DNA of 28,118 nt from Hamiltosporidium magnivora (taxonomy: Eukaryota > Microsporidia > Dubosqiidae): positions 1 through 28,118 of the forward strand of contig PITI01000048.1 of assembly GCA_004325065.1 (NCBI GenBank), written 5' to 3'. The notes below the pieces were generated by a model. The model worked only from the letters and a program-made list of their open reading frames with translations, did no database searches and was not told the DNA's origin. How positions within the stretch are numbered: position 1 is the stretch's first letter; every line of letters begins with the position of its first letter. This document shows, one piece after another, positions 719 to 27,642 of this stretch. A program made the translations under genes and the position numbers.

Positions 719-722
719 CCCC
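719..722 (+). promoter_or_regulatory. CCCC directly before the preferred start codon
   Basis: Four C residues sit immediately 5' of the ATG at 723. Short CCC-like or GGG-like motifs just upstream of start codons have been described as a gene signal in microsporidia. Its presence here, and of GGG before the paralogue at 26025, is one reason for choosing 723 over the ATG at 702. Confidence 0.4.
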
Positions 723-2321
723 ATGTTCTTTGAGCAATATAAATTAATGTTTTTCTGGTCTCTTATGAAACTGGCTATTCATAACGAATCTAAGGAAATA
801 TTAGCTGAAATGGAAAAAGCCAAAAACGATGAGGCAAGGCACAAAATTGTTACTATTTTCTCTAATAATTCTGGTATAAATCCTTTAATGTGCACGATCA
901 CAATCAATGAAAGTACCACCAAAGAGATGAATAAAGAAGATAAAAATATTAGTAATAACTCGAAAAATTACAGTTTTACAATATCGAATTGTGTGTTGGT
1001 TTCACAGAACATTACTATTCCTCACAATTCTAGCATTCCGATATTTATTGATTATCACATAGACTCTTCCAACAACATTCAGGGTTTTGACCAGTCATCA
1101 GATCACACATTAGCTGGAAGGAATATTGTCCCAAGTATACAAGCACAAAATGATGAAACCAGCTTTCATCCAGTAAAAAATAAAAATAATGTACCCAAGC
1201 ACAATAATTATAAATATGATATAGAATTTGTAAGATTTTTTTTCACTAATAAAAAAAATATTCAAAATCCAACGGTTATATTTGAACAAATTGAACGCAT
1301 ATTTGTGCATAATACCAATAACACATTAATAATTAAAAATTTTTATAAAAAAAACAAGTATATATTTAAGGACTTATACGATATCGAAATGAAGATGCAG
1401 AAGAATTTGCAAAATAGTAACATAATGGACGAAGTGCTGAGAATTTTTCTTGAAAAAATGAGTTCAATCAAAATCCCACAGACCAATTGTCCAATATTAT
1501 CGCTATTCCCGGGTTTAATTTTACTGAACAATTTTGTATTTGATAAAATAACTACAGTGGCTACCAACGAAACTTCCATATTTTGTATATTCTATGGATC
1601 TAAAATCATTGAAAAAATATTACAAAATCATACTTCATATTTTATTGAAAATTCGAATAATTTATATGGGAAAAATGTGAGACGGCCCGATTTTAAATTA
1701 AACACCCACTTTTACATGATTATAGAAAATGATTTTCGTAAAATTTTAGAAATTGTTGGGTTAATTAGAAATTTACTGGGTTTCCCAAATGAAAGCAAAA
1801 AAATAATTTATTTAGTCAGAGATATTTATTTTTATTTGGTAAATGATTTTATTGGAAATCACTTTGCAAACGATATTATCTTAAGATGTGTACTAGATTT
1901 AGTCTTTTTATTTGATAGTGAGACGATAGAATATTTAAAGCTGTACTTTTATGAGAAAGCGGATCCCGAGAATCGAACGCGGGCCAACTTTAAGAGTTTT
2001 TTTTATGACTATTTAAATTTCAAAAATAGTATATCTATAAAATTTATCGATTACTATCTAAATCTTTTTCAAAACGAGACATTTAAAAATTTAATAATTA
2101 TTCCGAAAGACGAATATAATTATTTTATCGATTACTTGATTGAAATGAAAGAATATATGAAGAAGAGTCATGAAAATAGTAGTATAAGACGAATTATTTT
2201 TAAAGTATTGAAAAATTCTCAAATATTTTTACGATATAATATAAATATTAGATTAAACTCGCTGGTTTTCACCGATATCTATAAAGAAAAAATGGAAAAT
2301 TGCTATCATTTTATGTCGTGA
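723..2321 (+). CDS. Lineage-specific paralogous family protein, member A
   Basis: Intact single-exon gene of 532 residues from the ATG at 723; the frame also has an ATG at 702, giving 539. I prefer 723 because the N-terminus MFFEQYKLMFFWSLMK then lines up with paralogue MLFKKYFFLVFWSLTK at 26025, and CCCC precedes it. Counting from 702, landmarks are a hydrophobic N-terminus (about 8-26), ISNCVLVSQ (94-102), NCPILSLFPGLI (262-273), DLVFLFD (399-405) and a block ending FTDIYKEKM (523-531). Cysteines are few and predicted structure looks mostly helical. The N-terminus could be a signal peptide or anchor, but a charged residue makes this uncertain. No known domain or function is recognised. Around codons 420-429 there is an unusually GC-rich patch (1959-1988). 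AATAAA lies about 78 bases after the stop. The endonuclease part of a dead LINE begins about 330 bases downstream. Confidence 0.9.
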   Translation: MFFEQYKLMFFWSLMKLAIHNESKEILAEMEKAKNDEARHKIVTIFSNNSGINPLMCTITINESTTKEMNKEDKNISNNSKNYSFTISNCVLVSQNITIPHNSSIPIFIDYHIDSSNNIQGFDQSSDHTLAGRNIVPSIQAQNDETSFHPVKNKNNVPKHNNYKYDIEFVRFFFTNKKNIQNPTVIFEQIERIFVHNTNNTLIIKNFYKKNKYIFKDLYDIEMKMQKNLQNSNIMDEVLRIFLEKMSSIKIPQTNCPILSLFPGLILLNNFVFDKITTVATNETSIFCIFYGSKIIEKILQNHTSYFIENSNNLYGKNVRRPDFKLNTHFYMIIENDFRKILEIVGLIRNLLGFPNESKKIIYLVRDIYFYLVNDFIGNHFANDIILRCVLDLVFLFDSETIEYLKLYFYEKADPENRTRANFKSFFYDYLNFKNSISIKFIDYYLNLFQNETFKNLIIIPKDEYNYFIDYLIEMKEYMKKSHENSSIRRIIFKVLKNSQIFLRYNINIRLNSLVFTDIYKEKMENCYHFMS

Positions 2322-2398
2322 CAATGAATTAAAACAAGATTTTTTTCCATATTTTTATTTTTTTCACTGTTTAATACGTAAAGACATATATTTCTATA

Positions 2399-2404
2399 AA
2401 TAAA
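2399..2404 (+). terminator. Candidate polyadenylation signal for member A
   Basis: AATAAA about 78 bases downstream of the stop of the first family gene. This hexamer is common by chance in AT-rich DNA, so support is modest. Confidence 0.35.
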
Positions 2405-2653
2405 TTCATAAACTAGAAACAAAGAAATAGGTAATTAATAAATTCTGCTAAATTAATATAATAACTCCGCCAAAAAATACGAGATCTTCTATTCTAGTCC
2501 CAAGCCAAGATAAAAGGTGAAAGATTAACAAAAGGCTAAACCACTATCTCATAAACTATATTGTTATGAAACAAAAACGAAATAATAAAATTTCTAAATG
2601 CTAACCAAATCAAATAATAAGAAAAAAAAAAGCAATTTTTAATAGATATCAGA

Positions 2654-3378
2654 ACAGCAGATTTGCGCCGACCTTTTCGACCAGGTTTATTGTATAATTT
2701 ATCTAGTATACGAAGAAATATATGTAGATATTTTTGCATTATAAGAAATCAGATGGAAGGGAACAGACGTGATAAAAACAAAGGAATACACTGTGTTCTA
2801 CAGCAGAAAAACGAATAACGTACTTGAAACAGTTTCTGCTTTTGAAAACAATCTAGTGAAAATTTTTTAAGAATATAAACCTATTGATGCACGTTTGTAT
2901 TCAATATGATTCATGAGAAACGTTTTTAACTCAATATTGATGTGAATTACGTGCTACTAAAGATACTAACAAAAAAAATAAAGATTCATCTCATGGCAGA
3001 CTGATATAGTCTAAGAAAACGCACCAAGAAATGATTTAAAAATATTTTATGTGAATTTAATGCAAAATTAGGAAACGATATGAGGTGCAGATTCCCGATT
3101 GAACAAAAAATCATTTATCCGGAATCGGATAAAAACGAAATCAGAGTAATTAAATTGGCATTAATTATGAACTTTACTATTTCTAGCAGTCTTCCATCAT
3201 AAAATATTACATAGATACACTCTGCTACCACCAGTGGTAGTACATTCAAGCAAATCTATTATGTGCTTATTGATTTGATACATGTATAAAGTGTAAAATT
3301 TATGAATTTTTAGATGCGCCGATGAGATTAAAATCACTTTTTGGTGAAGATGAAGTATAAGGAGTATATATCCAACTC
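2654..3378 (+). pseudogene. LINE endonuclease domain remnant
   Basis: Starts with RPFRPGLLYNL (2669-2701), matching the region after the TWN motif in LINE endonucleases. After a frameshift near 2702 come EIRWKG (2745-2762, corresponding to QExRWxG) and KTKEYTVFYS. A further frameshift leads to EFNAKLGND (3053-3079), the degraded GDFNAK metal-binding and catalytic motif. A long in-frame stretch from 3134 runs through KQIYYVLI (NQIDHVLI in relatives) to NHFLVKMKY near 3371, matching the final SDHFLV motif. Stops interrupt every part. A live domain of this type nicks target DNA to prime reverse transcription; this copy cannot. Confidence 0.82.
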
Positions 3379-3960
3379 AAATCTTTACAGAAGATATACA
3401 TTAAAAGATATAATACCAATATTTGAATGATATGGCTTTTAGAGAAAATGTGTAAATACATAGACCAGATACTTAAACTTAACAAGCCTTATATAATAGC
3501 TGAAATAGATTATACCCGGATCCAGGTAAGCTAAAAAACTAAAAAAAACTGGAGTGAAAGTTTTAGGTGAAAAACAACCGAGGAAATTTATTTTTAGTTC
3601 GATCTGATCTGCAAACCGATCATTAGCTTACAAATTAACTCAGAATTGCAATGCCTTGGCCTAATACTAGATTTATATGGCAAATTACTTTACGGCAGAA
3701 ACTAATATAAAGAGTATTTGCTTTAAATTAGAGCCCTATAGATCAAAAGCAATAGAATGCAATCAGATAATTAAAATATAAGAAAAATTTATGATGAAAA
3801 TAGAATATAATAATGAGTATTCGTATCAAAAAAACTGTATTCTTTAGTACAAATGGCAAGTTTTATAGCTTCTAAAGAAACTTCAGATTAGATGGCTAAA
3901 TATTTTTAAACTTTAAAAATTAGATTAAGAAGATAAATTAGGCCAAGAAAAATGTCGTAA
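3379..3960 (+). pseudogene. LINE linker between endonuclease and reverse transcriptase
   Basis: This stretch occupies the place of the poorly conserved linker in such elements. The piece GVKVLGEKQPRK (3551-3586) resembles the 'A-E-E-V-L-G' segment often found there. The rest is full of stops and not alignable by eye. It is assigned to the element because it lies between two clear domains in the same orientation. Confidence 0.6.
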
Positions 3961-4830
3961 GGATTTAGCGAAGAAGAATATTTGAACCATAGCGAATTAA
4001 ATGTCGAAAATTTAACTTTTGAGTAAATAATAACAGCGATTATGGGTTTGAGAAATCATAAAGCATCGGAAGAAGAGAAAATTTCAGTCGAATTTGTATA
4101 ATATAGCGAGGTTAAATTCTACGAAAACATACACGAATTGGTTAAAATCATATTTAAAAAGCGAGAAATACCCAATGAATAAGTTTTAAACCGATAATAC
4201 TTGTATATGCCAAATCCAAAATATGGAATTTACTACTTATACAGGAATATGTCTGTCAAATATAAGTTTAAAATTCTAAGCAAAATAGTCGCAAATGAAT
4301 TAGAGATATGCGATGAATAAATTATCGATATTATCAGTGTAGTTTCTGTTATTTAGATCGACAAAAAATCTACTATTTAATACAAGAATGATTTTGGAAA
4401 AATCCTTCGAATATGAAATTCTTACTAAAAAACCTCTTTTAGACTATAAACAAGCTTATGATAGTATTGATCGTAAATACATGGTTGATGTTCTTAGCGA
4501 TTTGGGAATGCCTACAGAATTGTTATGAATGATAACAATAGCGCTAACCAATGAAAAATAGAAAATATTGTTTGCAAAAGATACCATAAATGACTTTAGA
4601 ATATATAGAGGCTTGAAACAATTAGATATGTTATCATGAATATTATACAAACTGGAATCTAAAATATTTTTCGTAAGCTAAATATAAGGGAGGTAAAGGT
4701 TTCATATAGAAACAATTTATATACAACTTAAGATGACGACCTAAGTATAATCTACAGGAAAGAAGAAAATATGAAATCTTCATCTGATGCTAAACCCAAG
4801 AAATAAGAAATCGTAAGCAAAAGATTAATT
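3961..4830 (+). pseudogene. LINE reverse transcriptase domain remnant
   Basis: From 3961 to about 4335 one frame carries LRNHKASEEEKISVEFV (the NHKAPGxDxIxxE motif), then ILSKIVANELE. After frameshifting around YQCSF (4334-4348) a new frame opens at 4388 with MILEKSFEYE and DYKQAYDSIDRKYM (4442-4483), the F-x-D-x-K-Q-A-Y-D-S motif with the first catalytic aspartate. It continues to LGMPTELL and RIYRGLKQLDMLS, the G-x-x-Q-G-D-x-L-S motif with the central glycine changed to leucine. After another frameshift comes a stop followed by DDDLSIIYR (4732-4758), the damaged YADD catalytic box. Stops are frequent. Confidence 0.85.
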
Positions 4831-5056
4831 AAACAAACCAAGCATGCATAAATGACTTTCAAACTTCTTTACAAATACCAAGAGATTGACTCATTAAACT
4901 TCCACAGGTATCAAGCTTTTACCATCTTGGAAATTCTAAAAAGTAGGAATAACGATCGCAAAGATAAAATTATGGAATGGAGGAGGCAAAAGAAACTCTA
5001 TCTTTTGATGCGAACCTTGATTAGATCGAATTTATACGAAAGAATTCCATAAGAAT

Positions 5057-5510
5057 GTGTATTTGAATATCATTCGACCTATTGTAATGTATAGAAAAGA
5101 GAATTGAGTTATGAAAAAAAAAGATAAAATACTTTTAGACACGTAGAAAAGAAAGATAAGTAATAGAATATATGATCCAAAACTTCTGATCAATATGCGA
5201 AAATAAAAAACAGATCTAGAAATTTATGAAATCCATGTTAAATAAAATTTCGCAAGTATAATAAAAAGACTAAGATTAAGATACTAATATGTGTATCACG
5301 AATTTTCCCAGATTGAAATGAAAACCAAGCTTACATTATAAATCCAATGGAAAAAGAAGAAAAGGTGACAAAAAAAGATCGATAGATGATTGAGAAAATG
5401 ATCTGAGAATTATTAGTCTAATCAGGGAAATAAAGGCGCGCTGGATTGAGAAGAAATATGATAATTTTTTCAAGATGCCCGGGCTCTTTAAGAGCCGTGG
5501 TGTCATTTAG
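5057..5510 (+). pseudogene. LINE thumb and basic C-terminal tail remnant
   Basis: VYLNIIRPIVMYRKEN (5057-5104) followed by a stop and VMKKK matches the K-x-x-I-R-P-x-x-x-Y-G-x-E-x-W-x-x-x-K segment after the reverse transcriptase palm, with tryptophan turned into TGA. From 5349 one frame runs to 5510 with a single internal stop. It starts GKRRKGDKKRSIDD, the degraded GRPKKRWIDD tail, and goes on to RWIEKK and PGLFKSRGVI before TAG at 5508-5510, probably the native stop. Parts of the small open frame at 4852-5052 overlap this area but do not read as LINE protein, so I do not call it a gene. Confidence 0.8.
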
Positions 5511-6128
5511 TAGTATTAGACCTTTTTATTGTTAGACTAATTTTAAAAGATCTTTTCTTTAAATAGTGTGGTTTTGGTTACACCGAGAATTCAAACAATG
5601 ATTTTATCAACAATTTGATTTGATCATGACCAGCAAAAATTTTCCATTATTATCTTATATCTACTAATACATATGAATATAATATACATATATTATATTT
5701 ATATTCATTTCTCCTTCGACTCATAAATCTATTTCTCAAGCATTCTAGAAATTTAATTTTTTAGAATTTATACAATTCAATAAATGCGCTGTTTTTAAAA
5801 AATTGTAACAAATAATTTTTTTTGTGCAATGATCTTCATTAAAGAAAGAAATGATGGCTTAGGAATGAAAATCAAGATATTTTAATGCACAAAAAAGATT
5901 TGTATTGTTGGATGATTCATTTAATTAAATCAAAAAAATGTATTAATATTAGAAATATAGAGACAGAATGAATTTTTTTGCCTTAGTTAGTGAAAGTATT
6001 TTTTAAAAGGCTTATCTTTTTTGACAAATCAATCCATGTGAAATATAATGTTGAAATATATTTTGACATTATAGAAATATAAAAGTTATTTCTATTTTCG
6101 GAATATTCTACTATTTATATCCAAAATT
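5511..6128. other. AT-rich spacer after the LINE, with one palindrome
   Basis: Probably begins with the 3' untranslated remainder of the LINE. An imperfect palindrome with 10-base arms lies at 5673-5708. Beyond that I see only AT-rich sequence. The last 60 bases before the next gene are the only place a promoter could sit. Confidence 0.45.
5673..5708. repeat. Imperfect AT-only palindrome
   Basis: Arms ATGAATATAA and TTATATTCAT enclose a 16-base AT-rich centre that is itself partly self-complementary. It could form a hairpin or cruciform. It lies about 160 bases after the LINE stop codon and may be part of the element's 3' end, or chance in AT-rich DNA. Confidence 0.4.
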
Positions 6129-6149
6129 TTGTCCTTTAATTTTATAATT

Positions 6150-6701
6150 ATGATTCTTAATGATTTTGATCGGAAAATAAAATCCTATAAAATGAATTCA
6201 AATAATAAGGAAACAGACAAGGTACTTGGAATGGAAAAGTACATAATAGCCACTACAGATAGTAAGATTGGAACTATCAACTTTTCAAATGAGCAAAATA
6301 TATCAATTACCGGCGATTTAAGGCAAATTTTCGAAATAAATCATGAGAATATAAATATAAAGGAATTAAATGAAGCTAATTATTTGTGTAAAAATGCAGA
6401 CATAATGACAAAAACCATGAAATACGATATATCCTTATCCTACCTACCAATATCTTTTAAACTTTTATTTAATTTTCTGGTTGTAATTTATATGCTGACC
6501 ATAACTGTTTTTAATTTATGTTTGATACTTTACTCTTTATTTTTTCAAAGTCTTTTGATTTTATTTATATCAATTTCGCTAAATCAGTTATTAATTTTTT
6601 ACATTTTTTTCCAAATTTATTTCTATTCAAATTTTAATTTTATTTTGAGTCTTTTTACTGTTTTTGCCAGTAGTTCATGTTTTATTGCCGATAATTTTTG
6701 A
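6150..6701 (+). CDS. Hypothetical multi-pass membrane protein
   Basis: Open frame of 183 residues from ATG 6150. The frame extends upstream only to a TTG at 6129, which is an unlikely eukaryotic start. A second ATG at 6192 would give 169 residues and cannot be ruled out. The first 90 or so residues are hydrophilic and Asn/Lys/Glu-rich. The C-terminal half, from about SYLPISFKLLFNFLVVIY, is almost entirely Phe/Leu/Ile with room for three membrane spans, suggesting a cytosolic or luminal head and a membrane-anchored tail. AATAAA begins three bases after the stop, which favours a real transcript. No family is recognised. It has no paralogue in the window and its orientation matches member A. The hydrophobic bias of AT-rich codons weakens the membrane evidence, so I am only moderately sure. 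Confidence 0.55.
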   Translation: MILNDFDRKIKSYKMNSNNKETDKVLGMEKYIIATTDSKIGTINFSNEQNISITGDLRQIFEINHENINIKELNEANYLCKNADIMTKTMKYDISLSYLPISFKLLFNFLVVIYMLTITVFNLCLILYSLFFQSLLILFISISLNQLLIFYIFFQIYFYSNFNFILSLFTVFASSSCFIADNF

Positions 6702-8044
6702 AAAAATAAATATTTTGTATTAAATTTCGTTTAAATTGCCTTTCTCTTTGATTGGTTATAATTTATTAAAAAAAACCAAAGATGAGAGTGAGTAAGAAAA
6801 TTAGCTAAAGTTTGAAAACGTGGACTCCAAAGGCGGATATAGAGCTGCAATTCAAAAAGATAACCATTTAAAAAAATAGCGCACCTCTTATAAATAGATA
6901 TTGTTTTACTGGTTCGTTCGCTTTATTCCGGTATTTTACATTTTTTTTAGTGATATTTGAGTGTTAGTTAATTCCAATAAAGCACTAAAGAACGAAAAAT
7001 AAAAACGTAAAAATGAAAATTTTTAAGATATCGCTGAAAATAAATTTATATGTCAATCAGTAATTAATTTAGGCAAAAGTCAGTAAAAATATTTATATGC
7101 CTTAATTTTGATATAATTAGATAAAATAATAAATCGAATTAATATTAAACTTTTGAGGAACCGTTAAACTATGTTTTCTTCAAATTTTCTAAACCCATGC
7201 AACATTTTTTAGTGATTAACTCTAAAAAATCACACAATAAATTTTTTAAACTCATAGATATCAATAAAACTTATCCTATTCGGAGGAAATACTTATGTAT
7301 GCAGTAAGATTTTTCACTTGAAATTTGACAACAATCTTATAAAACCAAAACATGCCAAAATTATTCTATTAAAAATATCGACGTTCTTTTTTAGTTTATG
7401 AGCGCTATGATTGAAAAACCGGTTGTTAGAGTAGGCACAACTACTGTTTTAAATAAAAAAACATTATTATGAAATAGTACATAAATTTACAGTTTCTTCT
7501 GTCAGAATATATATTCAAATGCTTCCAACAGTCCATGAACTTAGAATTTAATAGAAACATAAGCGCGATATGATTTTAAGATTATATTTTACATTTTAAA
7601 TATATTTTTGATTCAAATAAAGAGCTTATTTATTTTTACTAGAAAAATGTTTATATAAAATGAAATAACGAATGATTATATCAAAATTTGGATTTAAGGT
7701 TCATAAAATGATTATTCGATGTCAAAAGGACCTAAAATCAATAAAAAGAATTTTTTATACATTTTCATATCTAAACCTTAATTATTTTACAAATGTAAAT
7801 AGTGGCACATCAAAAAAAATTGTTTTGATTTTATTATTATTTACTTCAGAAAATTATAAAACATTAATTTATATTTCAACTATTTGGAATTTTAAAATTG
7901 AAGTTTCACTATTATAATTGATATATATGCTGGTATTTTTTAATTGATTCAGGCCTTTTTTTGGCTTAAGTTATAATTCAAAACCCATTTTCTCGATCAA
8001 GGCAATAATTAATTGATATTTGATTAGGAATAGAAATGCAGATT
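6702..8044. other. AT-rich intergenic region
   Basis: No convincing gene. One copy (6871-6900) of a short motif shared with 13973-14012 and 14833-14870 is present. A lysine-rich 81-codon frame at 7672-7917 lacks any other support. Confidence 0.4.
6705..6710 (+). terminator. Candidate polyadenylation signal after membrane-protein ORF
   Basis: AATAAA three bases after the TGA stop. Such short 3' untranslated regions are usual in microsporidia. This placement supports the upstream ORF being a gene. Confidence 0.45.
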
Positions 8045-8266
8045 ATCAATAAAATATAGTATTCATATTATCGACACTACAGCCCTTTAGAAGCTTTAGC
8101 AGCCCTCGGTAATACCGCCCACCGGTTTTTTTTCAGTGGTTTTGTTTACTTTTTCGGGCTTTGTAACAAGGTGGTTTTGAAGAGTGGATTGTTAGCCTGA
8201 CTCCAAACCCCAAACCGGAGGACTAGTTCCTTTTAGTCGCTATTTACCACAAACAGAAAATACTCT
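8045..8266 (-). repeat. Dispersed repeat, copy 1 (inverted relative to copy 2)
   Basis: Read on the minus strand, this copy aligns along its whole length with 17041-17275 with few gaps, at very roughly 70% identity by eye. Shared blocks in order are GAGTATT, GCGACT, the TGGGGTT area, CAGGCTAACAA (AGGCTTAACAA in the other copy), AAGTAAACAAA, ACCGGTG-GCGGTAT and AAAGGGCTGTAGT. It is GC-rich for this genome and has no coding frame. It may be the 5' untranslated end of an arthropod-type LINE or a non-autonomous element. No endonuclease remnant follows it on the minus strand. Confidence 0.8.
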
Positions 8267-9369
8267 ATTTCAATTCCTCACGCAATTCCGAGGAAAAATT
8301 TATATAGTTAGTTCATATTTTTTCGATATCTGGATAATTTTTAACTTTACAAAATAAAAATACTCTTTAAACTTTAAAGGAATATTTATTCTAAAGATAG
8401 CACGACTACAAGACATTTTTTTTGACAAAATAAAAGAATTTACTATATGATTCTATGATGTATGAAAATTCTGATGTTTTTACTTGAAAAATTCATAAAT
8501 TGCTATTAATGATTTCCGAACAAAAAGGTTCAACAGACATTTCGGTTTTTGAAACGAAAAATAAAATATCTAAATATAAATAATCAAAACTGGAAAATTC
8601 TTGCCGTGCTTTTTAGAAAATATTTTTTTCAGCTTTTACTAGGCATCTTGTAATATTGCTGTGTAAAATGGAGATACAGAATATTAAATGATGCAGAAAA
8701 AGCCAAAATTAATAATTATTATACAAAGCTATGCTGCATTCGGCATTCACCAGTTACAATTTTATGATACATACATTGTTTTCATTCGTTCGGTTTTTCA
8801 AAACAGATTTCACAAGTCTAAAGCCTACATATTATTTAAAAAATTGTTTTTTGACTCTTTATAACGGTATTTCGGGTTCAAAAAACGTTAATGTATCGCA
8901 TATTTAGATATATAAGTCAATATTGATTAATATGTCTTTCTTTTATAAAATTATTATTTTAATCTAGCTTCTGAGTGATCATCATCTCAAACGATTTTTA
9001 TTTCACAAACTCGCAAAAAATCTAACACGACTCAATTACGTAAGGTGTAGTTCGACACTGATAGAATATGAGCACAAAACTTGTGCAGATACAAATATAT
9101 GCACAAGTCTGTAAAGCATTTATAGTTATATTCAGAACACTCGAAAAACTGGCATCATTAGTGCTGAAGCTATCGCATATTGCAATCTTCCTCTATCTAA
9201 AAATGTAATTTTCATTATAATATATCAAAAAAATTGCTTTAAATTCCCTGATTATAAGAAATCAAAAAAAAAACATGTTGCAAACTCAAATTCGGACTTG
9301 TTAAATCGTCTTGGCAGGATTTATAAAAAAAACAAATAGAATTTAAAAAGCTAGAAATTTATTCATACC
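8267..9369. other. Non-coding stretch with small nested inverted repeat
   Basis: No gene is visible. At 9072-9108 GCACAA/TTGTGC form a short hairpin and a further GCACAAGT can pair with the same ACTTGTGC arm. Otherwise featureless. Confidence 0.4.
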
Positions 9370-13724: not shown

Positions 13725-13855
13725 TTTAAAAATTTTGATAAAACGCGCTATTGCTAAAACGAGTCATATTCAAGCAAAATTGCACTACTTTTAAGCGCTA
13801 GAATTCCAAGACGATATTAGAATATTTATTTCAATCATATATATTTTATAATGTT

Positions 13856-14970: not shown

Positions 14971-17040
14971 ATTAAATAAAATTATTATAAAGATATTGTA
15001 AAAAAAATATATTTTTCGTTCGTTATATAAGTAATCTTCTCAAAATAACGACAATAAAGACCAAATTTAATTATATCACAAACTTTTTTTCCACAAATTT
15101 GGTAATATAGTTTTAATGTTACTAAAATGACTTTTTAATGCCTAAGAATGAATAAAAAAAGTATTAACTTGTATTAAGATACTTGAGAATATATTTTATG
15201 CTCTTTGACTACATATTTATTTAATAATGTGTTTTTCTTTTTTACGAATTCATTTATCGCTATAAAATCTTGAATTAAAAATCGAGAACCAAAATTTTCA
15301 CTTTATTTTTATTTTTTTAAAGGTTTCTGTTTTATAGAAGAATATAGGCGATCAATACGTAGAAATAACATAAAAGAAGGCGACATATTCCGACATGTAA
15401 TTATTTAAGATTTATAAAAAATATTTCCATTTTGATCTCAGTATATTTGACATGAATATATTAGGATAAAACATATGCTAAAATCTTAAACATTAAGATC
15501 AAAGAAAGAATATTTTCGCTAAAGAAGAAAACCCATTTCGATTTATTAATATATAATTTACCTAAAAATGATGATTCGATTACGCTGCCGAGATTTAAAA
15601 CAGCAACATTTTCATTCGCACAAAAAGCCATGTTTTTGGAAAATTATTTGTTAGTAAACAAGCGTCGGTAGAATATTATTCTACGATGATAATTTGCTTT
15701 GTAATTCTATTCAATAGTGAGAACAAAATAAAGCAGCATAAATTTAACAAAAAGCCACATTGTGTATGAAAACATACCAATATTAATAACATTGAATCGT
15801 AAGACTGTTTTCTTTTACATAAATGAATCATTAAAACATTGTGATTATCAATTAAAATAACCCCAAAGTAAAAAATTTAAAGAATATATTAGAATTTCTG
15901 CACCAAAATGTAAAGCTATACTGAAATTTGTAAAAATAATACGGAAATATATGATAAACTTCGACTGATTTACATTAATAAGAAAACATTTAAACCTTAG
16001 AAAAATATCATATATTTCTAAGATATCATATGAACGTTAAATTTAATTATAAGTCATGATTGAAAATTTGTACAGAAAATATGACTGGTTGTGTTTAAAA
16101 TCTCCAAAACAAAATATGGTTTTATTAGGGCCTTTAGCTGAGACTCGCTTTAATTTCAAAAATTTTAGTACACAATTTTTCATAAAATTTGTATCAATAG
16201 TTTATTTTTTATTAAAAACAATAATTGTTAATTTACAGTTCCAATTATTCCAAATCTAAGTTATGTGCTATAATCAAGAATATATATGAGTTAATACTGA
16301 AAAAGTTAAAAGCTTTTTAATGATGCCGAAATATCCAATAAGGTAGTTTCTTGGTTTAACAATGTTTTTAAGATCATGTTGCCTATAAAATTAAAATCGC
16401 TTATATTTTTGTAAATTATAAAAGCCAGAATATAACAGTACTTCTTTTAAGACTTAAAAAACATAAAATTTATAAAAAGACACTTTTTAAAAATAGAAAT
16501 TAGATTAAAAACAGTTAAAATTTTTATAACAAAAATACTTTAAAAGTTTCGGAAATTTAACGCTATTTTTTGACTATACGAGACTTTCATGATTCAGTGT
16601 AGATTAGTCTGTTACATATAAACTTTTATGTATTTTAGCTTGTATTATTTGATTAAATTTCATTTTTTATCTTATAATTAAAATTTTAATTGATATTTAA
16701 ATCGTTTCAAGTTACCCTATGAATCTTCCTAAAAATATAAATTATTTACGTTTCTCAACATTCCAATTTAATAACATGGCTATTGGTGAACAGAGCCTTT
16801 CATTTTGCCTATATTATCAGACGCTATGCATTTTTTCTTTTAATGACAGTTGTCTATTTTACTAGGGTTGTGCTCAAATCACATTTTTTTAGACCCAAAA
16901 TATGATTTGGGTGGCTGTTTCGAGATTAATAGACATATATTGTCTATATGTCAATATTTAAGTAAAATTTTATCCTTTTCTGTAACACAAAACACATCGA
17001 CATGATACTTCATTTTATAAGCCAATGAAATATTTTACTT
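14971..17040. other. AT-rich intergenic region
   Basis: No gene, RNA or clear repeat. A 67-codon frame at 16056-16259 with a hydrophobic tail has no supporting signal near start or stop. Confidence 0.4.
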
Positions 17041-17275
17041 CCCAACCATGGTAGGAGCAGAATTGGTTTGGAGTATTCTCTACTTGTCGTAAGAGGCGAC
17101 TGAAAGAGACTGATCCTCTATTTTGGGGTTGAGTGTAGGCTTAACAACCCACCCATTAAAACTACCTGTTACGAAAACCAATAAGTAAACAAACCCACTA
17201 GAAAAAGACCGGTGTGCGGTATCACTAAAGGATGTCAAGGCTTGCAAAGGGCTGTAGTACCAAGGATGAATGAAT
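17041..17275 (+). repeat. Dispersed repeat, copy 2
   Basis: Related to 8045-8266 on the opposite strand and better preserved. It begins near CCAACCATGGTAGGAG and contains a small hairpin, GTCG-TAAGAGG-CGAC (17087-17101). It then carries the shared blocks through ACCGGTGTGCGGTAT and AAAGGGCTGTAG, ending in GATGAATGAATGAT, which resembles the start of a short tandem repeat. It has no protein frame. G+C-rich islands of this make-up typically come from recently inserted elements; a 5' LINE end or a short non-autonomous element are both possible. Confidence 0.8.
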
Positions 17276-18615
17276 GATATATTTTATACTCGGGTAAAAG
17301 ATTTTTTGCAGGGTTTATAACAAGCTAATATTTAACCAAAACTAAGACTTTTAAATTAAATTAGAAATCGTGATTTTAGTATGGACTTTAGCAGAGATAT
17401 TTGCGGATAATTTTAAAGGTACAGAGTAATTGATTTCTATTTAGAATGAATGTCTTCGATATAGATAGCTTGGTTTAAAATTTCACATCTTTATAAAATG
17501 TTAGCATAAGTTAGATATTTTTTGTGGAGTAAACGTAGTTAGAGCTTATTCAAAGGTTATATTTCCTAGGTCTCCATCGTCATTCCTTGCGATACATCTC
17601 AAGGTGACACGTAAATGGTTATATATGTTTTTAAAATATTTACTTTAGAATTGTCTATTTTCGTTCTCCGGGCAGAATTTGGTGTAAAACTGGACTATAC
17701 TTCCTCAGGATCCGCAGAATATTCAGTTATCTTAGGTTTTCTAAAAATAAGCAACCAGCTAATATATTTCTGCACAAGAATCTGGGGGCTATTATTGTTT
17801 AATTAATACAATAATTTCAATCTGCTTTCTAAAATTGCGGGTTATTAGAGTTTTATCTTTGTTTTCTACATGCGCTAAGTCCTTCAACTATATAGAGTGG
17901 GGTCCAATTTCCTGGCTTCTATACGGAAATTACCTATAGTATTATTCTTGCATTTCAATATAGTCTGTAAAAAAATCCATAAACAGACTTCATAAAAAAA
18001 ATTTCGCTTATTTTTCATAAATTCTCTGTTAATGAACCCTTGCCATCAAAAGATCATGTGCGTGTTAAAAATTCAAAAAATCTGGACTCTTATTTTTACA
18101 CGGATTTTCTTAAAAACACGCCAGGCATAAAAGTTTTAACGTTGTTTTTATCTTTTACCACGAAAGGCTATCAAATAATTAGCTGCAAATAGCATTAATT
18201 AAATACGGTTTTGCTGAAAAAATATGTAAAAAAGGAATTTTGTCGGCATTTTTCTTGTATTTAAAAAATTTACGAGAATATTCCAGTCAATAATGAAAAT
18301 ATATTAATTTAAAAATGTCATTAAAATTTAATATTTATTATGGATATCTAAGAATATAATTATATAATGTGTTATGAACCTAAATAATATAACGTATTTT
18401 CTTTGCGTAATTATGTTCTTTTTTATATTTTAATGAAATTTTTAGTAATGGTAATCTATAATAAGATTTCTTACTAATATATTTAAAATAACTAGTTTAA
18501 CTAACGATTGGTTTTAACATATAAAGAAACAAAACAAATTTAAAATTTCTCGAATCAATTGTTTAGATCTTGAAATTGCGAAAGAAGAATTAAACTCAAA
18601 TTTTATTTTATTAAT
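17276..18615. other. Spacer with a small G+C-elevated island
   Basis: Between about 17530 and 17960 composition rises and both strands have partly open frames, the longest 63 codons at 17615-17806 (+). This could be more of whatever element the repeat at 17041 belongs to. I could not match it. From 18000 on it is AT-rich with nothing visible. Confidence 0.35.
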
Positions 18616-18621
18616 TTTATT
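18616..18621 (-). terminator. Candidate polyadenylation signal overlapping the stop of member B
   Basis: On the minus strand the stop TAA is contained in AATAAA, so the cleavage signal overlaps the end of the coding region. Overlap of this kind is typical of compact microsporidian genes and is striking in so gene-poor a region. Confidence 0.45.
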
Positions 18622-20239
18622 CCGTGTAATTTATTTCCTCAATGAAAGCTTCCAGCATTTTCTCTTTGTACTCATCTGTAAAAATCATTGAATTTACTTT
18701 TACATTGATATAATAGTGTATAAATATTTGAGTTTTTTCCAGTGCCTCGAAGGCAATAGTATTTATTTCAATATCCGTAAGATTTTGTGATATATTTTCT
18801 CTAATCTTATTCAAATATGAAATGTGTCGTTCATATTTTTGTTCGGGTATGTTGATATATTCTTTGAATATTTTATTCTCAAATATTTCTAAATAATATT
18901 TAATAAATTTACGACTTTCAAATACTGAAAAATCAATTATGTCTTGTTGAAACGATCTGAAAAGTGGAAATATATAAAGATTCGATTTACACGTATCAGA
19001 GTTGTATTCTATTATATATTCTATTGAATCTTCATCGAATAAAAATACCAGATCAAGCAAGGATCTAGTTATGATGTTTTTTGTATACCTATTATTTCTA
19101 AAATCATTCTTTAAATAATAACAAGCAGATTTTATTAATTTGGTCATTTTTTGATCAATTTGTCGCATTTCTAAGGCTTCATAGATGTATCTAACGATAT
19201 TAAGAATTTGTAACAAATAATTTTTTGTTATTTGTAAAGAATTGCGGCATAATCGAAATTTAGGATATTCTGAATTCTCTCCATATACAAAAGAATGATT
19301 TAATTCGGTAAATTTTAAAGAATCATAATGCAAAATACTTTCGATTATTTTACATCCATAATATATACTTATCATAGGTCTTTCATTTAATGACATATTA
19401 GTGAATCTTTTGTTTATGAAATCTTTTATAAAAATTAAGCCTGGAAAAAATGATAGTATTGCACAATTTTTTTTCGCTATTTCGATCTGATCTATTCTGG
19501 CTTTGAAAATAACTGCAACTTCCTTTAATATTCGTTCATCTTGCCAATATTCTTTCATTCCTGCCTCAATGTTTCTTAGTTTCCAAAACAACTTGCAATT
19601 ATTCATGAAAATATTTTTCAAAAATAAATTTCTGATTCTATATGAGTCATCTAAAAAACATAAAATATCACTATAAGAAGTACAGTTGATTTTATCTTTG
19701 CGAATACGTTTACAAATCTGTGTTAGTTTCTTTATTTTCTCAGAAATTTGGCACTGTAGATCTGTTTTATAATAATATTCTTTGGGAATTTCTTTGAGAA
19801 ACGTGTTTTCATTGTCTTTTTCATCAATATTTAGCAAAGTATTCATACAAGAAGGTGTTTGAGTTGAATCCGAAGCTGAAAATCGCGGGATTCCTGATAA
19901 TGTATGGCAGGCATGAGTATTATTTGAAGGGATTGGATTTTGTGAAGTTTTAGCCATATGAGAATCTAAAGCATTATTTGAAACTGGTATGGAGTATTTG
20001 TCTGTAGACTTACCCACATGTTCGGCTTTGCAAGGTAAAAATTCTTGTATCAAGGTAGTACTTGGATGCAAATAGGTGCTTGGTGTTCCCATAATATCTT
20101 CACACCAGAATGCACCAATATTGTGTCGTTTTATATGATCGTCTATTTTATATTCTTCGGCATAATAATTGGAAGGTAAACTTTCTATAGCTGATTTAAC
20201 AAAATTTCTAAAAATCCCTAAATATGATATAAAAAACAT
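18617..20239 (-). CDS. Lineage-specific paralogous family protein, member B (divergent)
   Basis: Intact single-exon minus-strand gene of 540 residues. The start MFFISYLGIFRNFVKSA aligns with the hydrophobic N-termini of the other two members. The C-terminal two thirds is clearly homologous: NCAILSFFPGLIFIKDF (258-274), YGCKIIESIL (294-303), DLVFLFD (396-402), and NVKVNSMIFTDEYKEKM (512-528). Residues about 45-150 are different: they lack the CVLVSQ block and form a Ser/Thr/Asn/Pro-rich stretch with dispersed His and Cys, probably disordered. Identity to members A and C is lower than theirs to each other. No domain or function is recognised. A secreted or membrane-anchored role is possible from the N-terminus but unproven. 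The ATG is preceded by GCC. It is transcribed towards the repeat at 17 kb. Confidence 0.9.
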   Translation of the reverse strand: MFFISYLGIFRNFVKSAIESLPSNYYAEEYKIDDHIKRHNIGAFWCEDIMGTPSTYLHPSTTLIQEFLPCKAEHVGKSTDKYSIPVSNNALDSHMAKTSQNPIPSNNTHACHTLSGIPRFSASDSTQTPSCMNTLLNIDEKDNENTFLKEIPKEYYYKTDLQCQISEKIKKLTQICKRIRKDKINCTSYSDILCFLDDSYRIRNLFLKNIFMNNCKLFWKLRNIEAGMKEYWQDERILKEVAVIFKARIDQIEIAKKNCAILSFFPGLIFIKDFINKRFTNMSLNERPMISIYYGCKIIESILHYDSLKFTELNHSFVYGENSEYPKFRLCRNSLQITKNYLLQILNIVRYIYEALEMRQIDQKMTKLIKSACYYLKNDFRNNRYTKNIITRSLLDLVFLFDEDSIEYIIEYNSDTCKSNLYIFPLFRSFQQDIIDFSVFESRKFIKYYLEIFENKIFKEYINIPEQKYERHISYLNKIRENISQNLTDIEINTIAFEALEKTQIFIHYYINVKVNSMIFTDEYKEKMLEAFIEEINYTE

Positions 20240-23200
20240 GGCTATGATTTTAATTTTCTTTTTATTCTAAACCAAGAAATCCATTTAGATCTGATACAAA
20301 AAACTTATCGATTTTTTGTCAAGAAGCGCACAAATGTTCCTTTGAAATGCTGAAATAAATCTTGTAATTTCGATTTTTTGCAAAATGTAATTTCTTATTA
20401 AAAAAATTAATATAAAATTGTTCTTAAAGAATCAAACGCTTAAAAAATTAGATACAAATTATTTTTAATACTTTAATGCATCTTTTGGATTTAAATAGTA
20501 AAACAAGCCATTATTATATATATCTTTAATAGAAAAAAATATATTTTATAAAATTTTTTACAATTAAAAGGAATCAAAAAATATTCCGAAATTAACTAAA
20601 AAAGGACAAATTATATTTTTAGAAAAAAAATTACCAAAAAAAATTCAAATGTCTAATCGTAGCTTTAAATTTAGACTGAATAAATTGTAAGCCAATATGT
20701 TGTTATAGTTTTAGATTTAGAAACTCAACTATTTCTTGTTTACTAGAAAAATATAATTGCTTTATATCTTTATTAATAAGATTTACTTTGTTATTAATGT
20801 AATATAGCATAAAATATTGCTTATATAGTAGTATTTTATAAAAAAAAAGAATGTAATTAGTCCGTGCAAGATCTATAAAATTTTGTGTCAATTTGTAGTT
20901 TTCTTTTAAACTATTAGATTAGAAATTTCTATTTCATTTAGAAATTGATAGTTAAAAATTTAAATCGAAAAAAACTAAATTTAAAAGTCATTGGAAAATA
21001 GAAACGTAACAAATATTATCTAGAGACTCGATCTGACAAGATGTTTCACAATACAGACGAACCAAATGCGCCCTCAAATAATTCGCTAAAAAATATTTTG
21101 AACGACTCTAAGCGCATAAAGGTATATCTAAATAATTACAGTATTCATGTCACTTTTCTTTCAATGTCGTATCCTCTGTATGCTCAGGCTTTTCTTATCA
21201 ATGGCAACCCAGTTAGGGTTTTGAGAATAACACTGTTAATATTTCCGTGGTCTCTTTTTAAGTTTCATATTGTTTATTGTATAGAAATATATGAGACCGT
21301 TTATTTGATTAGTAACGGTACGATTTAAAATTCTGATCGAAATCACTACCAAATCTTATAAATATCCCCAGAAAATTTTTCATGTTCCTTTAAATTACTT
21401 ATTTTTGAATATTTCTCATATAATACTATAAATAGAAAATATTAGAAATGATGGATTAAATCATCTGCAAGTCTTAATTGGCAATCAAATCAAGTCATAA
21501 CCTAAAAAATGTTGCATATAAATCTGCAAATAATTGTGTTGCCACAACCAATCCAATTTAATACCTTGAATAACTAAGATTTAAACTCGAAATCTAATCT
21601 TCAAATAATTTCAGTACATATTAAGTTTTTAAAGTATTTAAAAAGTTTAAAATGTGTGTTTTTTTTCGTATATTCTAGGCGATTAGAAAGAAACTTAAAA
21701 GGAAAAAAGACATGAGTATAATATACCAAGTCATTTGTAATCTTCCCTGGATAAGCTATTTGTATAAGATGAAATAAAATTCTATAAAATGCTTTTATTT
21801 ATTATTCCATTTAAGTCGTGATGTTGAATTACTTCTGATATACACATTTAGCATTTAAAAAAGTGTAAATATGCTTCCTGCTGCCTCAAATAATATAATA
21901 TTAATGAAAAGCTTTGCCTGAAAGTAAAAAACATAATTAGAAATTATAATCTTTGAATTAAAAAAATTAGTATGTACACATTAAATAGAATATTCTCAAG
22001 CATTTATAGACTGAAGTTTTCAAAAATTATTTGTGTTGTAAAATAATCGGAAATAGTTATTTTTATTAAATCTAGGATTTCTTAATTCAGGCAGAAAAAA
22101 CATCATTTTATATATCCGGCTAAATCTATTTGATATTTTTAGCACTTAATTTTGGCATTATTCGTTTATCAAACCATGATTAAACTTTAGAAATCGAAGA
22201 AAGCTAAATATATTTTTTGAAACACAAAAAAACTTAAACAATAATTGTTCCTAAAATTTATACCATGGAACTAGAAAAAAGATTCTATAAAAATTATTTA
22301 AACCAATTGATTTTGCTAAGCTACATAGATCTGTTCAGATTAAAAGTATCGCGAAACTATGACTTCATAAAAGTATAAATATACATTAAAACCTATCGCA
22401 CTCAAAGAAAATTTTATAAATACAGTCTGAAGAAGAATACAATGGTTCAAAAGTAGTTTAACTGTAAATTAAACCGTTAAAAATTTCAACATCTTTAGAA
22501 CTACTCTTTCTGATATGTTTTCAAATGAGAATTTCAATTTAAATGAGAATCATATGCAATTTTATAAAAGCAGTATATTTTTACAGTTCATATAAATTAC
22601 ATTTAAACCGAGTCTTATGATCTTATTAGTCATTACTTGTTTGCCTCAATGTTATAATTTATGTATCAGATTGATCGAACGATTCTGATCCCAAATTAAA
22701 TATAAAACCCCTTGGGTAGATTGTAATCTCATATATTTTTTGTTCGTATAATTCATTTGTATGCGCAAATAAAATATCCACAGAACAAACTATCTCAAAC
22801 ATATTTCCACTATAAATTCTTTTCTTGAAATAAATTATGACATACCTATATCAACAAGTTGACTAAATAGTCACTATAGAGAAAATAATACAATACCTAT
22901 CACTAAAAAATTTCTTTTTTCTAATATAAGTAGTACCTGGTTCGTATTTCAACATCACTTGAGCTTCTAGGCAATACTTCATTCTTTAAATATACCTGAG
23001 AGTGTTTTTAAAAAAGAAAATCATTTGACCTACTCGTTTTAAAAGAGAAGTGAAAAAATTCTAACCGCTATAACCATATATTAATACTACTTTATATAAT
23101 GAGTTAATCACATTATGGAATCACATATTCCTTAAATTTAGGAATACTTCGACTAATATATTTATCTTTTTCGGCTATATAATATTTTTATGTTGTATAA

Positions 23201-26021
23201 AACATTCCGCTACAGTATTTTTTAGAATTATTGTACAAATTTATACTTTTAAATTCCAAAACTTATAAATTCTTAGTATTGTAGTCAAATATAAACTTGG
23301 AAAATTATTCTAGCTCTTATATATACTCAAGAAATTAAGAAATCAGAGTCAAGCGGACAACTAGCAGAATATCAAAACTTAAAAATCACATCATAGTAAA
23401 ATATTGGTATATTTGTCTCAAATATCTAAAAAAACGACTCGGGAATTCAAACGCTAAAAATTTGACAGAACAGAGTTTAATAGCTTTAATTTAGATCATA
23501 TGGTCATATGACTTAAATGATAAAAATTTAGCTTTAAGGACCTAACTTTTATCTTATACACTTAAACCATGAATCACATTATAGATTCATTATAATTATG
23601 TAGCCTTTTAGATAATTTTTGATTTTTTAAAATACCGTCTAAATAAAATTTTAAGAGTCATGGCAGTGTATACCAAGCACAACAATCGTGTAGATATTAT
23701 ATGCATCTTACTTGGGAAGGTTAATACAGTTTGAGTCTTAAACTTAAACAAAGTGTCTTTATTTTGTTTTAATTCATAAATAAGTACGAGGGATTGTCCA
23801 AAATTGAAATATAAATCTTCAACTGAAAAAATAAATTTTTATTTGATTTTTTTAATGAGAATAAAACTGAAAATCACAATTAAGTCTAAATTTTACTTTT
23901 TTCTTCGAATTATTTAAACTAAAAGACAAATGAATTTTTAACTTAAATAAAAATCGAAAAACGCTCTTAAGCACAGAAATTTTTTCGAAAATTTCTAATA
24001 TTTTAAGTTTGATGATATTTCACGGATGTTATAACCAATAAAATGAAGATATATGTTAACAGCAGGATCTAAACACAAATAATATACAAATTGACTATCG
24101 GAATCAAGTTTACTCATCTCTTTTATATAAATTGGAATGTGATATCAAGAAGACTCTAAATGAAGCGTAAATATTTAATAATGACGAAATTCAAAGGAAA
24201 AATTTTTATAAACAATTAAAGGTAATATATTGATTCTATGTTAGTTATATAATAGTGACGATCCAAAGTCTATATCTCAACGATTGATACAAGTTTAAAT
24301 TAGAGTATATGTAATATAAAATAAGATTAAATAGAAGAAAAAACATAATCAAAATCAATATATCTCTGTGTCGTCTGTTCTTTATTTAAACTTTGTTTAA
24401 ATGAAAATTAATTAACATTTTGTACGCTTTTAAATCATTTATCGAAATCTTAAGTGATCGTATTTTAAAGAAAGTACCTTTTAAGATATGAAAAATATTT
24501 CTTGCTATTATCCGTATTAGTACACAGCTAAAAATAAGAAATTTTAACTTCATTAGTAGTTTGGTATTTGTTACATTCTATTATTTTTTACAAGCTTTAA
24601 AAATTAAATTAGATAATTGCTCATTCTGATTTAGATTTTATAAAGATTTTACTTTAAGTATAATAAAAACTTATACTATATTTTAGAGTCTTAAAACCTT
24701 TTAGCTCCTCTGTCATAATGAATTTTATAAAAAGTTTCGAGTGCCAAAAACCTACTAGATTTTATAAAAACATGCTATGATTATTTCTTTGTGTTTATAT
24801 GATTTCAATTTGAATAAAATTTTAAACAACCATTTGTCGTTCAAAAAGATAAAAATGCACCTTGTCAACATTTTTAAATAAAAATATTCAATAAAATTCT
24901 AGGATTTTAAAAGATTCTAAGACCGTGTGATTCAATCGTGTTAATAAATTTTTATAAGAATTATTTGTGCCATCATGCACTAATTATCCAAGTGAAAAAA
25001 AATCTTTGAAATGAAATACACAAAAAAATTTACAATTTTAGCCTAATAGATAAAAATCTGAAGTCATTATTGATAATTTCTACTGATAAAGTTAACCGAA
25101 AATTTCAACACATCAATAGTAAGAAATATTAACTACATTAATCTCACTATTAATAATGTATGACATAAATTTTTTGTGATTTCATTTTGGTTTTCAGTAA
25201 AAATTTCAAAAAATATCATTAGTCTTTAAATCGATGATTGAAATTTAATAAATTTTCTTTGTAATACAAATACATAATTACAATTTCAATAGTCTAATTT
25301 GTTTAATACAATATATTTATATTTGTTTTATTTTCTAAAAAAAAAACCTATTCTACAAAAAAAATTGTGGCAGACCGGATAACTATATTATGTCGCAAGC
25401 CGTAATAGAGATCCTAACTAGATGAATATTCTTTTCATTATAAAATCTAAAAAATGTATAAAACGTAAAATAGAACTCCTATTTGAGGTTCAATTAAAGG
25501 TTTTGAAATAAATTTATATCTATTTATAGTTCTGAGTTAGTAGTAAAAAAATCTATAATTTATTAGGATTTAGTTCATTTTTTTCGTATAATACCATAAA
25601 TGCAATATTTAAATTATCTTTTTTTACAATTTAACTAGAATTACTTCAATTTGTACATATGAAGATAAATTAAATTTTGATTACCCGAATTTTATATTTT
25701 TTTTGCAATTTTTTAAATCATTTTATAAATTTTGAGAATATATGATTTAAAAATAAAATTTTGAATAGTGTTATTATTCTTGATCAATAATATCGCTTGA
25801 ATTTTCACATTCTGCAATTTCCATTCTATGTATGATTAAAATAGAGTTCTTAATATTTAAAACAAGTTTTAACCTGAATTATTAGTTTACTAAAATAGAT
25901 CAAAAATATCTCAAATTGCTATATTTAATTATAATATAAAGGAAATTATTCGTTTTAAATTTTTTTCAAAACATTATGTACTTATTTAGAAAAAATATAT
26001 AAAAAATATAAAAAATTTTTA
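20240..26021. other. 5.8-kb AT-rich desert
   Basis: Uniformly AT-rich with stops in all frames. Two short frames are noted with low trust: 20703-20891 (-), 62 codons, basic and Tyr-rich; and 21041-21328 (+), 95 codons, with a polar start and hydrophobic C-terminal half. Neither has a start-proximal C or G run or a nearby AATAAA. I see no transposon motif, tRNA or structured repeat. Confidence 0.5.
21041..21328 (+). CDS. Doubtful small hypothetical protein
   Basis: A 95-codon frame starting MFHNTDEPNAPSNNSLKN, with a hydrophilic first third and hydrophobic stretches after residue 37. It is the longest frame in the desert and slightly richer in G and C than its surroundings, which is why it is listed. 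There is no paralogue in the window, no recognised motif and no polyadenylation hexamer near the stop. It may be a gene, a fragment of a dead one, or chance. Confidence 0.2.
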   Translation: MFHNTDEPNAPSNNSLKNILNDSKRIKVYLNNYSIHVTFLSMSYPLYAQAFLINGNPVRVLRITLLIFPWSLFKFHIVYCIEIYETVYLISNGTI

Positions 26022-26024
26022 GGG
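26022..26024 (+). promoter_or_regulatory. GGG directly before the start codon of member C
   Basis: A long A/T-only stretch ends in AGGG immediately before the ATG at 26025. A GGG-like triplet at this place is a reported microsporidian start-proximal signal and is conspicuous here because G is so rare around it. Confidence 0.4.
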
Positions 26025-27626
26025 ATGCTTTTTAAGAAATATTTCTTTTTGGTTTTCTGGTCTCTAACAAAAACGGCTGTTCAAGATAAAGTTTCGGAGT
26101 TATCAACAGACTTAGAAAAAGCAAAAATCGGTTTGAAAAGCCGTTTGATTGTTACAGTTTTCGGAAATGATTTGGATAAAAAATTTTCGATTCGTAAATA
26201 TCCAGAAAAAACTGATTCAAAAAATGAAAATCGTTGTAATCCTCCTAATCATTATATTTTGAGCATATCTGATTGTGTTTTGGTTTCACAGAAATTTTAT
26301 ATTTCACATGATTCTGATATTCCAATAGCCATTGATTATTTTGTAGACTGTTCCGAAAATCCTTCATACATTTATCAGCCTCACATTAACACATCTTCTT
26401 TGGAAACAATCACAAATCAAACACATAACACAGACATCGAAAGTAGTATTGGTGTAAAAACCAATAAAACTAAAAAACCAATAAATATTAGCCACGATTA
26501 TGCTTTTAAATATATAATAAAGATGTGCAATGGTAATGAAAACATTCGAAATCCATTGAACCTTTTTGAAAAAATTGAAGACAGTTTTGAGTGTTTTAAG
26601 AAACAAAATTTTGATGAACAAAATTTTGATTTGGAGTCTCTTTTTAAAAGCAATTGCTTTGTTTTTGTATGTTTGAATGTGATTGAGAAGAAAATGAAAG
26701 AAGATTTGAAATGTGAGGCTTTTTTTAAGTGTATTTCCGAATCTTTAATCAAAAGAATGAGATGCATCGAGATTGCAAGACATAATTGTCCTATATTGTC
26801 ACTTTTCCCTGGATTGATTTTCTTAAAAGATTTTATATCCGATCAAATACCTAAAAAGCCTATCAAAGAAATCTCCATATCTAGTATATTTTATGGATTA
26901 AAAACAATTGAAATAATACTGCAAAGTCCTTCATTAAGTTTTCCGGTTGTAAATTCGAAAGTTTTATACAATTATAATTCTAAATATACAGAATACAAAT
27001 TGAGTCCGGAAATATTAAAAAAAGTAAAAGATGATTTAAGAAATGTTTTATATACAATTCGATTGATCAAAAATTTACTTCTTTCTCCAAATGAAGGCAA
27101 AATAATGTGCAAGCTGATTATTAATATCTGTTTTTATATGCATAATGATTTTATTAACGGTAAATATACCAAAAATATTATTTTGAAATGTGTACGCGAT
27201 TTGGTATTTTTGTTTGATGTGGAAACGAAAAAATATTTAGAAAGTTACTTTTATAGAAATAATGAGTCTGATGTCGTGAGGCCTTTGATAACGAGTTATG
27301 AATATGACTTTGAACATTTTTCAATTCATGAATCTTTAAAATTCATAGATTACTATTTAAAATTATTTCAAAGCGAGACGTTCAAAAAATACATAAATTT
27401 GTCCTCAAGCGATTATACTTGTTATATTGATTATTTTATCAAAATTAAGGAACGTGTAAAAAGTAAACTTGAAGACAAAGACATAAAAAAGATAATTTTT
27501 GAAACTTTAAACAAATATCATATATTTTTACGATATAACATGAATGTGAGATTAAATTCCGGCATATTTACCGATGACTATATACTAAAAATGAGAATTC
27601 TTTGTATTCAAAGCTTATTGACATGA
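26025..27626 (+). CDS. Lineage-specific paralogous family protein, member C
   Basis: Intact single-exon gene of 533 residues. It is closest to member A: MLFKKYFFLVFWSLTK at the N-terminus, LEKAKIGLKSRLIVTVF (30-46), ISDCVLVSQ (81-89), NCPILSLFPGLI (254-265), IFYGLKTIEIILQ (288-300), DLVFLFD (392-398) and RYNMNVRLNSGIFTDDY (503-519). The segment between about 110 and 155 is Asn/Thr/Ser-rich and variable in length between members, suggesting a flexible linker between an N-terminal and a C-terminal module. No catalytic motif is apparent. The N-terminal 20 residues could be a signal sequence or membrane anchor. The start is fixed by alignment with the other members and by the GGG before it. AATAAA follows the stop by about 16 bases. 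Confidence 0.92.
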   Translation: MLFKKYFFLVFWSLTKTAVQDKVSELSTDLEKAKIGLKSRLIVTVFGNDLDKKFSIRKYPEKTDSKNENRCNPPNHYILSISDCVLVSQKFYISHDSDIPIAIDYFVDCSENPSYIYQPHINTSSLETITNQTHNTDIESSIGVKTNKTKKPINISHDYAFKYIIKMCNGNENIRNPLNLFEKIEDSFECFKKQNFDEQNFDLESLFKSNCFVFVCLNVIEKKMKEDLKCEAFFKCISESLIKRMRCIEIARHNCPILSLFPGLIFLKDFISDQIPKKPIKEISISSIFYGLKTIEIILQSPSLSFPVVNSKVLYNYNSKYTEYKLSPEILKKVKDDLRNVLYTIRLIKNLLLSPNEGKIMCKLIINICFYMHNDFINGKYTKNIILKCVRDLVFLFDVETKKYLESYFYRNNESDVVRPLITSYEYDFEHFSIHESLKFIDYYLKLFQSETFKKYINLSSSDYTCYIDYFIKIKERVKSKLEDKDIKKIIFETLNKYHIFLRYNMNVRLNSGIFTDDYILKMRILCIQSLLT

Positions 27627-27642
27627 ATCTGAACCAAGTTCT

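What the first reader, a model, noticed from the sequence alone, without database searches (positions are those of the whole stretch)
723..27626. Dispersed three-member gene family with no recognisable domain
Three intact genes (723-2321 +, 18617-20239 -, 26025-27626 +) share ordered blocks: NC-[PA]-ILS-[LF]-FPGLI, a YG-x-K motif, DLVFLFD and a C-terminal NS-x-x-FTD-x-Y motif. They are the only large open frames in 28 kb, and everything between them is decayed. Diverged yet intact paralogues imply selection. Expanded families of this sort in microsporidia often encode secreted or host-interacting proteins; that role is inference only.
Basis: partly seen in the sequence, partly recalled or inferred. 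Interest (0 to 1): 0.75.

Follow-up and report, generated by a model that had tools for sequence, protein, structure and literature searches.

The report
Hamiltosporidium helical-domain gene family, probably secreted
Three look-alike genes in this stretch belong to a larger, changing gene family found so far only in a genus of water-flea parasites; they may make secreted or surface proteins with a helical domain for which no solved look-alike was found, but their job is unproven.

Summary
They are not a three-member family: searches of the same Hamiltosporidium assembly found 11 open copies of at least 500 aa in three subfamilies and 9 degraded loci, one in this window. Profile comparison joins the subfamilies (E 4e-11 to 2e-14). 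CCC or GGG, the microsporidian start signal, precedes 9 of 10 genes but 17 of 912 other ATGs of the window. No Pfam, NCBIfam or PDB sequence family was matched; the five homologous database proteins are all Hamiltosporidium. The conserved C-terminal part is predicted all-helical (pTM 0.79), with no confident PDB neighbour. Six of ten genes start with a signal-peptide-like segment; the window's three do so only weakly. One near-identical gene pair differs 3.3 times more in the CDS than in its flanks, synonymous sites included, which fits gene conversion. Best reading: a genus-specific birth-and-death family like other microsporidian large gene families, perhaps host-exposed. New family of a known kind; function inferred.

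The parts
723..2321 (+). intact family member (532 aa), subfamily A
   Evidence: 99.6% identical to P0001, H. magnivora CWI39_0722p0010
719..722 (+). CCCC immediately before the start codon: microsporidian CCC-like signal
   Evidence: motif described in PMC2803860 (passages)
18617..20239 (-). intact family member (540 aa), subfamily A; only GCC before its ATG, counted as a miss
26025..27626 (+). intact family member (533 aa), subfamily A; 96% identical protein on contig C110
26022..26024 (+). GGG immediately before the start codon: GGG-like signal
26517..27626 (+). conserved all-helical core domain (369 aa modelled, pLDDT 75.4, pTM 0.79)
   Evidence: alignment A4; model
15777..16047 (+). degraded relic of a further family member (C-terminal part)
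   Evidence: two tblastn pieces with the 26025 protein, 43% over 42 and 78% over 18 residues, E 5e-8; weaker (E 0.015); DNA match
22719..28118 (+). stretch 98.8% identical to the end of contig C110 (allele or recent duplicate); divergence concentrated in the CDS

Best explanation
The three genes are subfamily A of a Hamiltosporidium multigene family that turns over by local duplication, decay and probably gene conversion. The genes are single open frames, nine of ten with a microsporidian CCC/GGG start signal. They code for about 500-560 aa: an N-terminal hydrophobic segment (signal-peptide-like in subfamilies B and C), a variable Asn/Ser/Thr/Pro-rich region of roughly 150-200 aa that is predicted with low confidence and read as disordered, and a conserved all-helical core of about 330 aa. 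Shown: family, intactness, constraint, start signals, restriction to Hamiltosporidium in the searches made, predicted layout. Inferred: the proteins enter the secretory route and reach the parasite surface or the host cell, where the helical core binds a host partner while the variable region and copy turnover diversify exposed surfaces.
For: Family. Start signal: CCC or GGG within 8 nt of the ATG in 9 of 10 genes, against 23 of 1230 ATGs in the window plus 10 kb of C110 and 17 of 912 in the window alone with the three gene starts left out. Constraint: omega 0.056 and 0.08 for two window pairs, 0.16 and 0.22 for two subfamily B pairs; omega = 1 rejected. Fast N-part: identity 23-33% in the first 200 residues against 37-44% after them for the three window pairs, about 30% against 51-54% for the two B pairs. 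N-terminal hydrophobic segment: in 5 of 12 proteins no window beyond residue 30 reaches it, in 2 more just one does. All five homologues found are Hamiltosporidium. Such families are typical of microsporidian host-exposed proteins: PMC5423893 reports 68 families from 23 genomes, 59 of them with no member outside the genus or species (passages).
Against: The window's own three proteins have weak N-terminal segments (12-mer hydropathy 1.79, 1.24, 1.37), reached by 6, 9 and 22 internal windows; C110 is alike. No expression, localisation or secretion data were seen and SignalP was not available. The core matched no known binding fold, so 'binds a host partner' has no structural support. PMC5423893's criterion of signal-peptide enrichment was not tested.
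Confidence: 0.5

Rival explanations
1. The proteins are secreted but structural: spore-wall, polar-tube or matrix components rather than factors acting on the host.
For: Signal-like N-termini in subfamilies B and C; 5-16 cysteines and 5-15 N-glycosylation sequons per protein in the ten genes measured.
Against: Core spore components are usually shared across microsporidia (recalled); this family was found only in Hamiltosporidium and many of its copies decay.
Confidence: 0.2
2. They are intracellular or membrane-bound parasite proteins of unknown role; the hydrophobic N-termini of subfamilies B and C are later gains, or the window's clade lost secretion.
For: Weak N-terminal segments in the window's three genes and C110; omega well below 1; 19-residue hydropathy beyond residue 35 peaks at 1.24-1.80, the highest in C50, so an internal membrane segment is not excluded.
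Against: Six of 10 genes have N-terminal hydropathy of 2.0 or more, in two of three subfamilies.
Confidence: 0.2
3. The ORFs belong to an unrecognised mobile element, which would explain dispersal near repeats and decayed copies.
For: A dispersed repeat lies between the genes; nine degraded loci.
Against: In flanks of up to 1.3 kb, DNA similarity between paralogues stops near the CDS ends; leaving out the two near-identical pairs, what lies outside is one piece reaching 64 bases upstream in C126a/C482, one reaching 57 bases past the stop in C126b/C482, and short flank matches of 24-162 bases. Copies diverge singly, about 20 loci were found, and gene-type start signals are present. No transposase-like family was matched.
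Confidence: 0.06

Closest known systems
Microsporidian large gene families with signal peptides (e.g. NemLGF1, NemLGF5; PMC5423893, PMC10393165)
   Same: Lineage-restricted paralogous family without known domain, N-terminal secretion-like segment in many members, local clusters (passages)
   Different: About 20 loci found rather than over 100 as in NemLGF1; found only in Hamiltosporidium; no proteomic evidence of host exposure; sequence relation to NemLGF families not tested
InterB / InterAE families of Encephalitozoon (Pfam DUF1609, DUF3654; PMC4704409)
   Same: Multigene family of unknown function with pseudogenes and a predicted signal peptide (passages)
   Different: No Pfam match in the window's proteins at E up to 1; InterB and InterAE are subtelomeric with a predicted transmembrane domain; subtelomeric position was not testable here
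Ricin-B lectin and LRR families of microsporidia
   Same: Expanded, host-interaction candidates (passages)
   Different: No Pfam match; predicted core is all-helical

Membership tests
Microsporidian large gene family (definition of PMC5423893) | at least 10 unique proteins in one genome | tested here: inconclusive
   10 unique open proteins from 11 open ORFs (C12 and C50 identical), but C110 may be an allele and homology runs past the stop of C394
[quoted passage not shown]
   no SignalP or TMHMM and no genome background; only hydropathy was computed
Microsporidian large gene family (definition of PMC5423893) | usually restricted to a genus or species | tested here: met
   all 5 proteins found are Hamiltosporidium, within the reach of a shared-word search
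Microsporidian large gene family (definition of PMC5423893) | host exposure | not testable with these tools
   needs proteomics or imaging
InterB/InterAE | Pfam DUF1609 domain | tested here: not met
   0 Pfam families at E up to 1 for the three window proteins; DUF1609 not listed for 11 further proteins
Ricin-B lectin | ricin-B Pfam domain | tested here: not met
   not listed at E up to 1
Any solved fold | significant fold match of the core | tested here: inconclusive

The most novel reading that the evidence does not exclude
The family is a gene-conversion cassette system: diverged coding tracts are moved between copies and haplotypes while flanks stay near-identical, so that a new helical fold with a variable exposed part is diversified without sex (H. 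tvaerminnensis is described as asexual in PMC12376958, passage; which species the window is was not settled).
Probability: 0.12. Interest if true: 0.75.

Novelty: new member of a known kind. Interest (0 to 1): 0.45.

Why it matters
Hamiltosporidium and Daphnia are studied as a host-parasite pair. The 2009 survey of Octosporea bayeri, since renamed H. tvaerminnensis (recalled), reported no evidence of gene or segmental duplication (PMC2784321, passage). A constrained, turning-over family with secretion-like N-termini in many members gives concrete candidate genes for that interaction. If the conversion-like pattern holds, it would show one way in which such a parasite diversifies exposed proteins.

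Tried and rejected

Rfam and tRNA scans of the window: no hits. Start at 702 for the first gene: dropped because CCCC lies before 723. Positive selection as the sole cause of the high CDS divergence of 26025/C110: not supported, since dS (0.04) exceeds flank divergence (0.0064) and omega is 0.44. Saturated dS makes omega between window genes a bound, and one pair gave no finite dS. The C12/C50 pair was first read as support for conversion; it is weak, since the outer flanks are identical too, and I lowered the novel case from 0.15 to 0.12 for that. P0002 ends in about 180 residues unrelated to the family that look to me like a retroelement ORF (recalled; Pfam gave 0 families).

Literature: 8 searches. 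I saw no description of this family in the titles and abstract openings listed; several lists were capped. One genome paper on Hamiltosporidium (Haag et al. 2020) is not held. Seen as passages only: PMC5423893, PMC12376958, PMC2784321, PMC4704409, PMC4589312, PMC2803860, PMC10759460, PMC10393165; PMC10542269 as abstract plus a find without matches.

Full report
What is there. The window is contig C48 of a 10.74 Mb, 644-contig assembly. The three ORFs exist as stated, share the listed motifs and align over their length at 32-39% identity. Base shuffles of each CDS carry about 47 in-frame stops, so intact frames are not chance. The nearest named proteins are H. magnivora CWI39_0722p0010 (99.6% to the 723 gene) and CWI39_0028p0010 (96.7% over 480 residues to the 26025 gene), while the C138 protein is 98% identical to H. 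tvaerminnensis CWI38_0817p0010. The assembly is therefore Hamiltosporidium; the species was not settled.

Size of the family. Single-protein searches of the same assembly found subfamily A (C48 x3, C110), B (C126 x2, C482) and C (C138, C12, C50, C394) as open frames of 500 aa or more; C12 and C50 code for the same protein. C394 may be truncated, as homology runs past its stop. Degraded loci: C160, C52, C488, C644, C177, three on C138, and C48:15777-16047. Counts are lower bounds, as the tool scores only its best candidates. Profile comparison joins A-B (E 1.8e-14, 280 columns), A-C (4.2e-11, 308) and B-C (1.3e-12, 349). A tree of 12 core sequences separates C from A plus B with 100/99 support, but the program warns of long branches (C50, C394) that may join falsely. 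Three homology searches of 5.8 billion proteins gave 5 proteins in all, each from Hamiltosporidium; that tool needs shared 5-residue words, so remote relatives in other genera are not excluded.

Are they genes. CCC or GGG lies within 8 nt before the ATG in 9 of 10 distinct genes (w18617 is the miss), against 23 of 1230 ATGs in the window and 10 kb of C110, gene starts included, and 17 of 912 in the window alone with the three starts left out. With C110 dropped (8 of 9) the binomial probability is about 1e-13 either way. This is the signal described for microsporidia with very short 5' UTRs (PMC2803860, passages). A codon model rejects omega = 1 for the six pairs tested, narrowly for 26025/C110 (LRT 4.3).

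Anatomy. AlphaFold2 of the 26025 protein gave residues 14-204 at pLDDT under 50 and a better helical remainder. The core alone (369 aa, 13 sequences) gave pLDDT 75.4, pTM 0.79, almost all helix. Four columns are invariant in the core alignment: E, K, D, Y at core positions 57, 129, 228, 280. The first 200 residues are less conserved than the rest in the five distant pairs tested. N-terminal hydropathy is 2.0 or more in six of ten genes and lower in subfamily A.

Copy dynamics. Window 22719-28118 matches the end of C110 at 98.8%. The CDS holds 34 differences in 1602 bases, the flanks 21 in 3306 and 4 in 492 (odds ratio 3.3, P 9e-6). dS is 0.04 and dN 0.017, so synonymous sites also exceed the flanks. 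Of 29 amino-acid changes private to one of C48, C110 and P0002 (480 residues), 13 are C110's, 13 P0002's and 3 C48's. C12 and C50 are identical across the CDS and in the outer flanks, and differ at 59 sites in an upstream patch of about 1 kb and at 6 just downstream; that pair shows patchy divergence but does not by itself single out the gene. Gene conversion fits the 26025/C110 pattern; retained old alleles or assembly mixing of copies are not excluded, and no further near-identical copy that could be a donor was listed in this assembly.

Function. By analogy with microsporidian large gene families, which are enriched in host-exposed proteins (PMC5423893, passages), I commit to secreted or surface-exposed proteins with a helical binding core, at 0.5. 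No result here shows secretion or host contact.

Noticed in passing
window 17060-17287 (+) and 8049-8276 (-): Two copies (74% alike) of a dispersed repeat, mostly matched over about 218 bases; 40 places scored out of 203 candidates in the assembly. Its end looks like a LINE 3' tail (recalled, not tested).
   Followed up: partly
window 4343-4528 (+): Stop-to-stop frame with a reverse-transcriptase-like stretch, perhaps part of a decayed retroelement (the motif is recalled, not tested by a profile).
   Followed up: no
window 6129-6701 (+): Open frame of 190 aa (183 from the ATG at 6150) with a hydrophobic C-terminal half; only itself found in the assembly, no Pfam match, and no CCC/GGG seen before its ATGs.
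   Followed up: partly
P0002 (H. magnivora CWI39_0028p0010): Relative of the 26025 gene whose last ~180 residues are unrelated to the family and look retroelement-like (recalled), suggesting an insertion in that strain or an annotation fusion.
   Followed up: partly
G000 C12 and C50 (L044, L045): Identical coding sequence and outer flanks on two contigs, with a diverged upstream patch of about 1 kb.
   Followed up: partly
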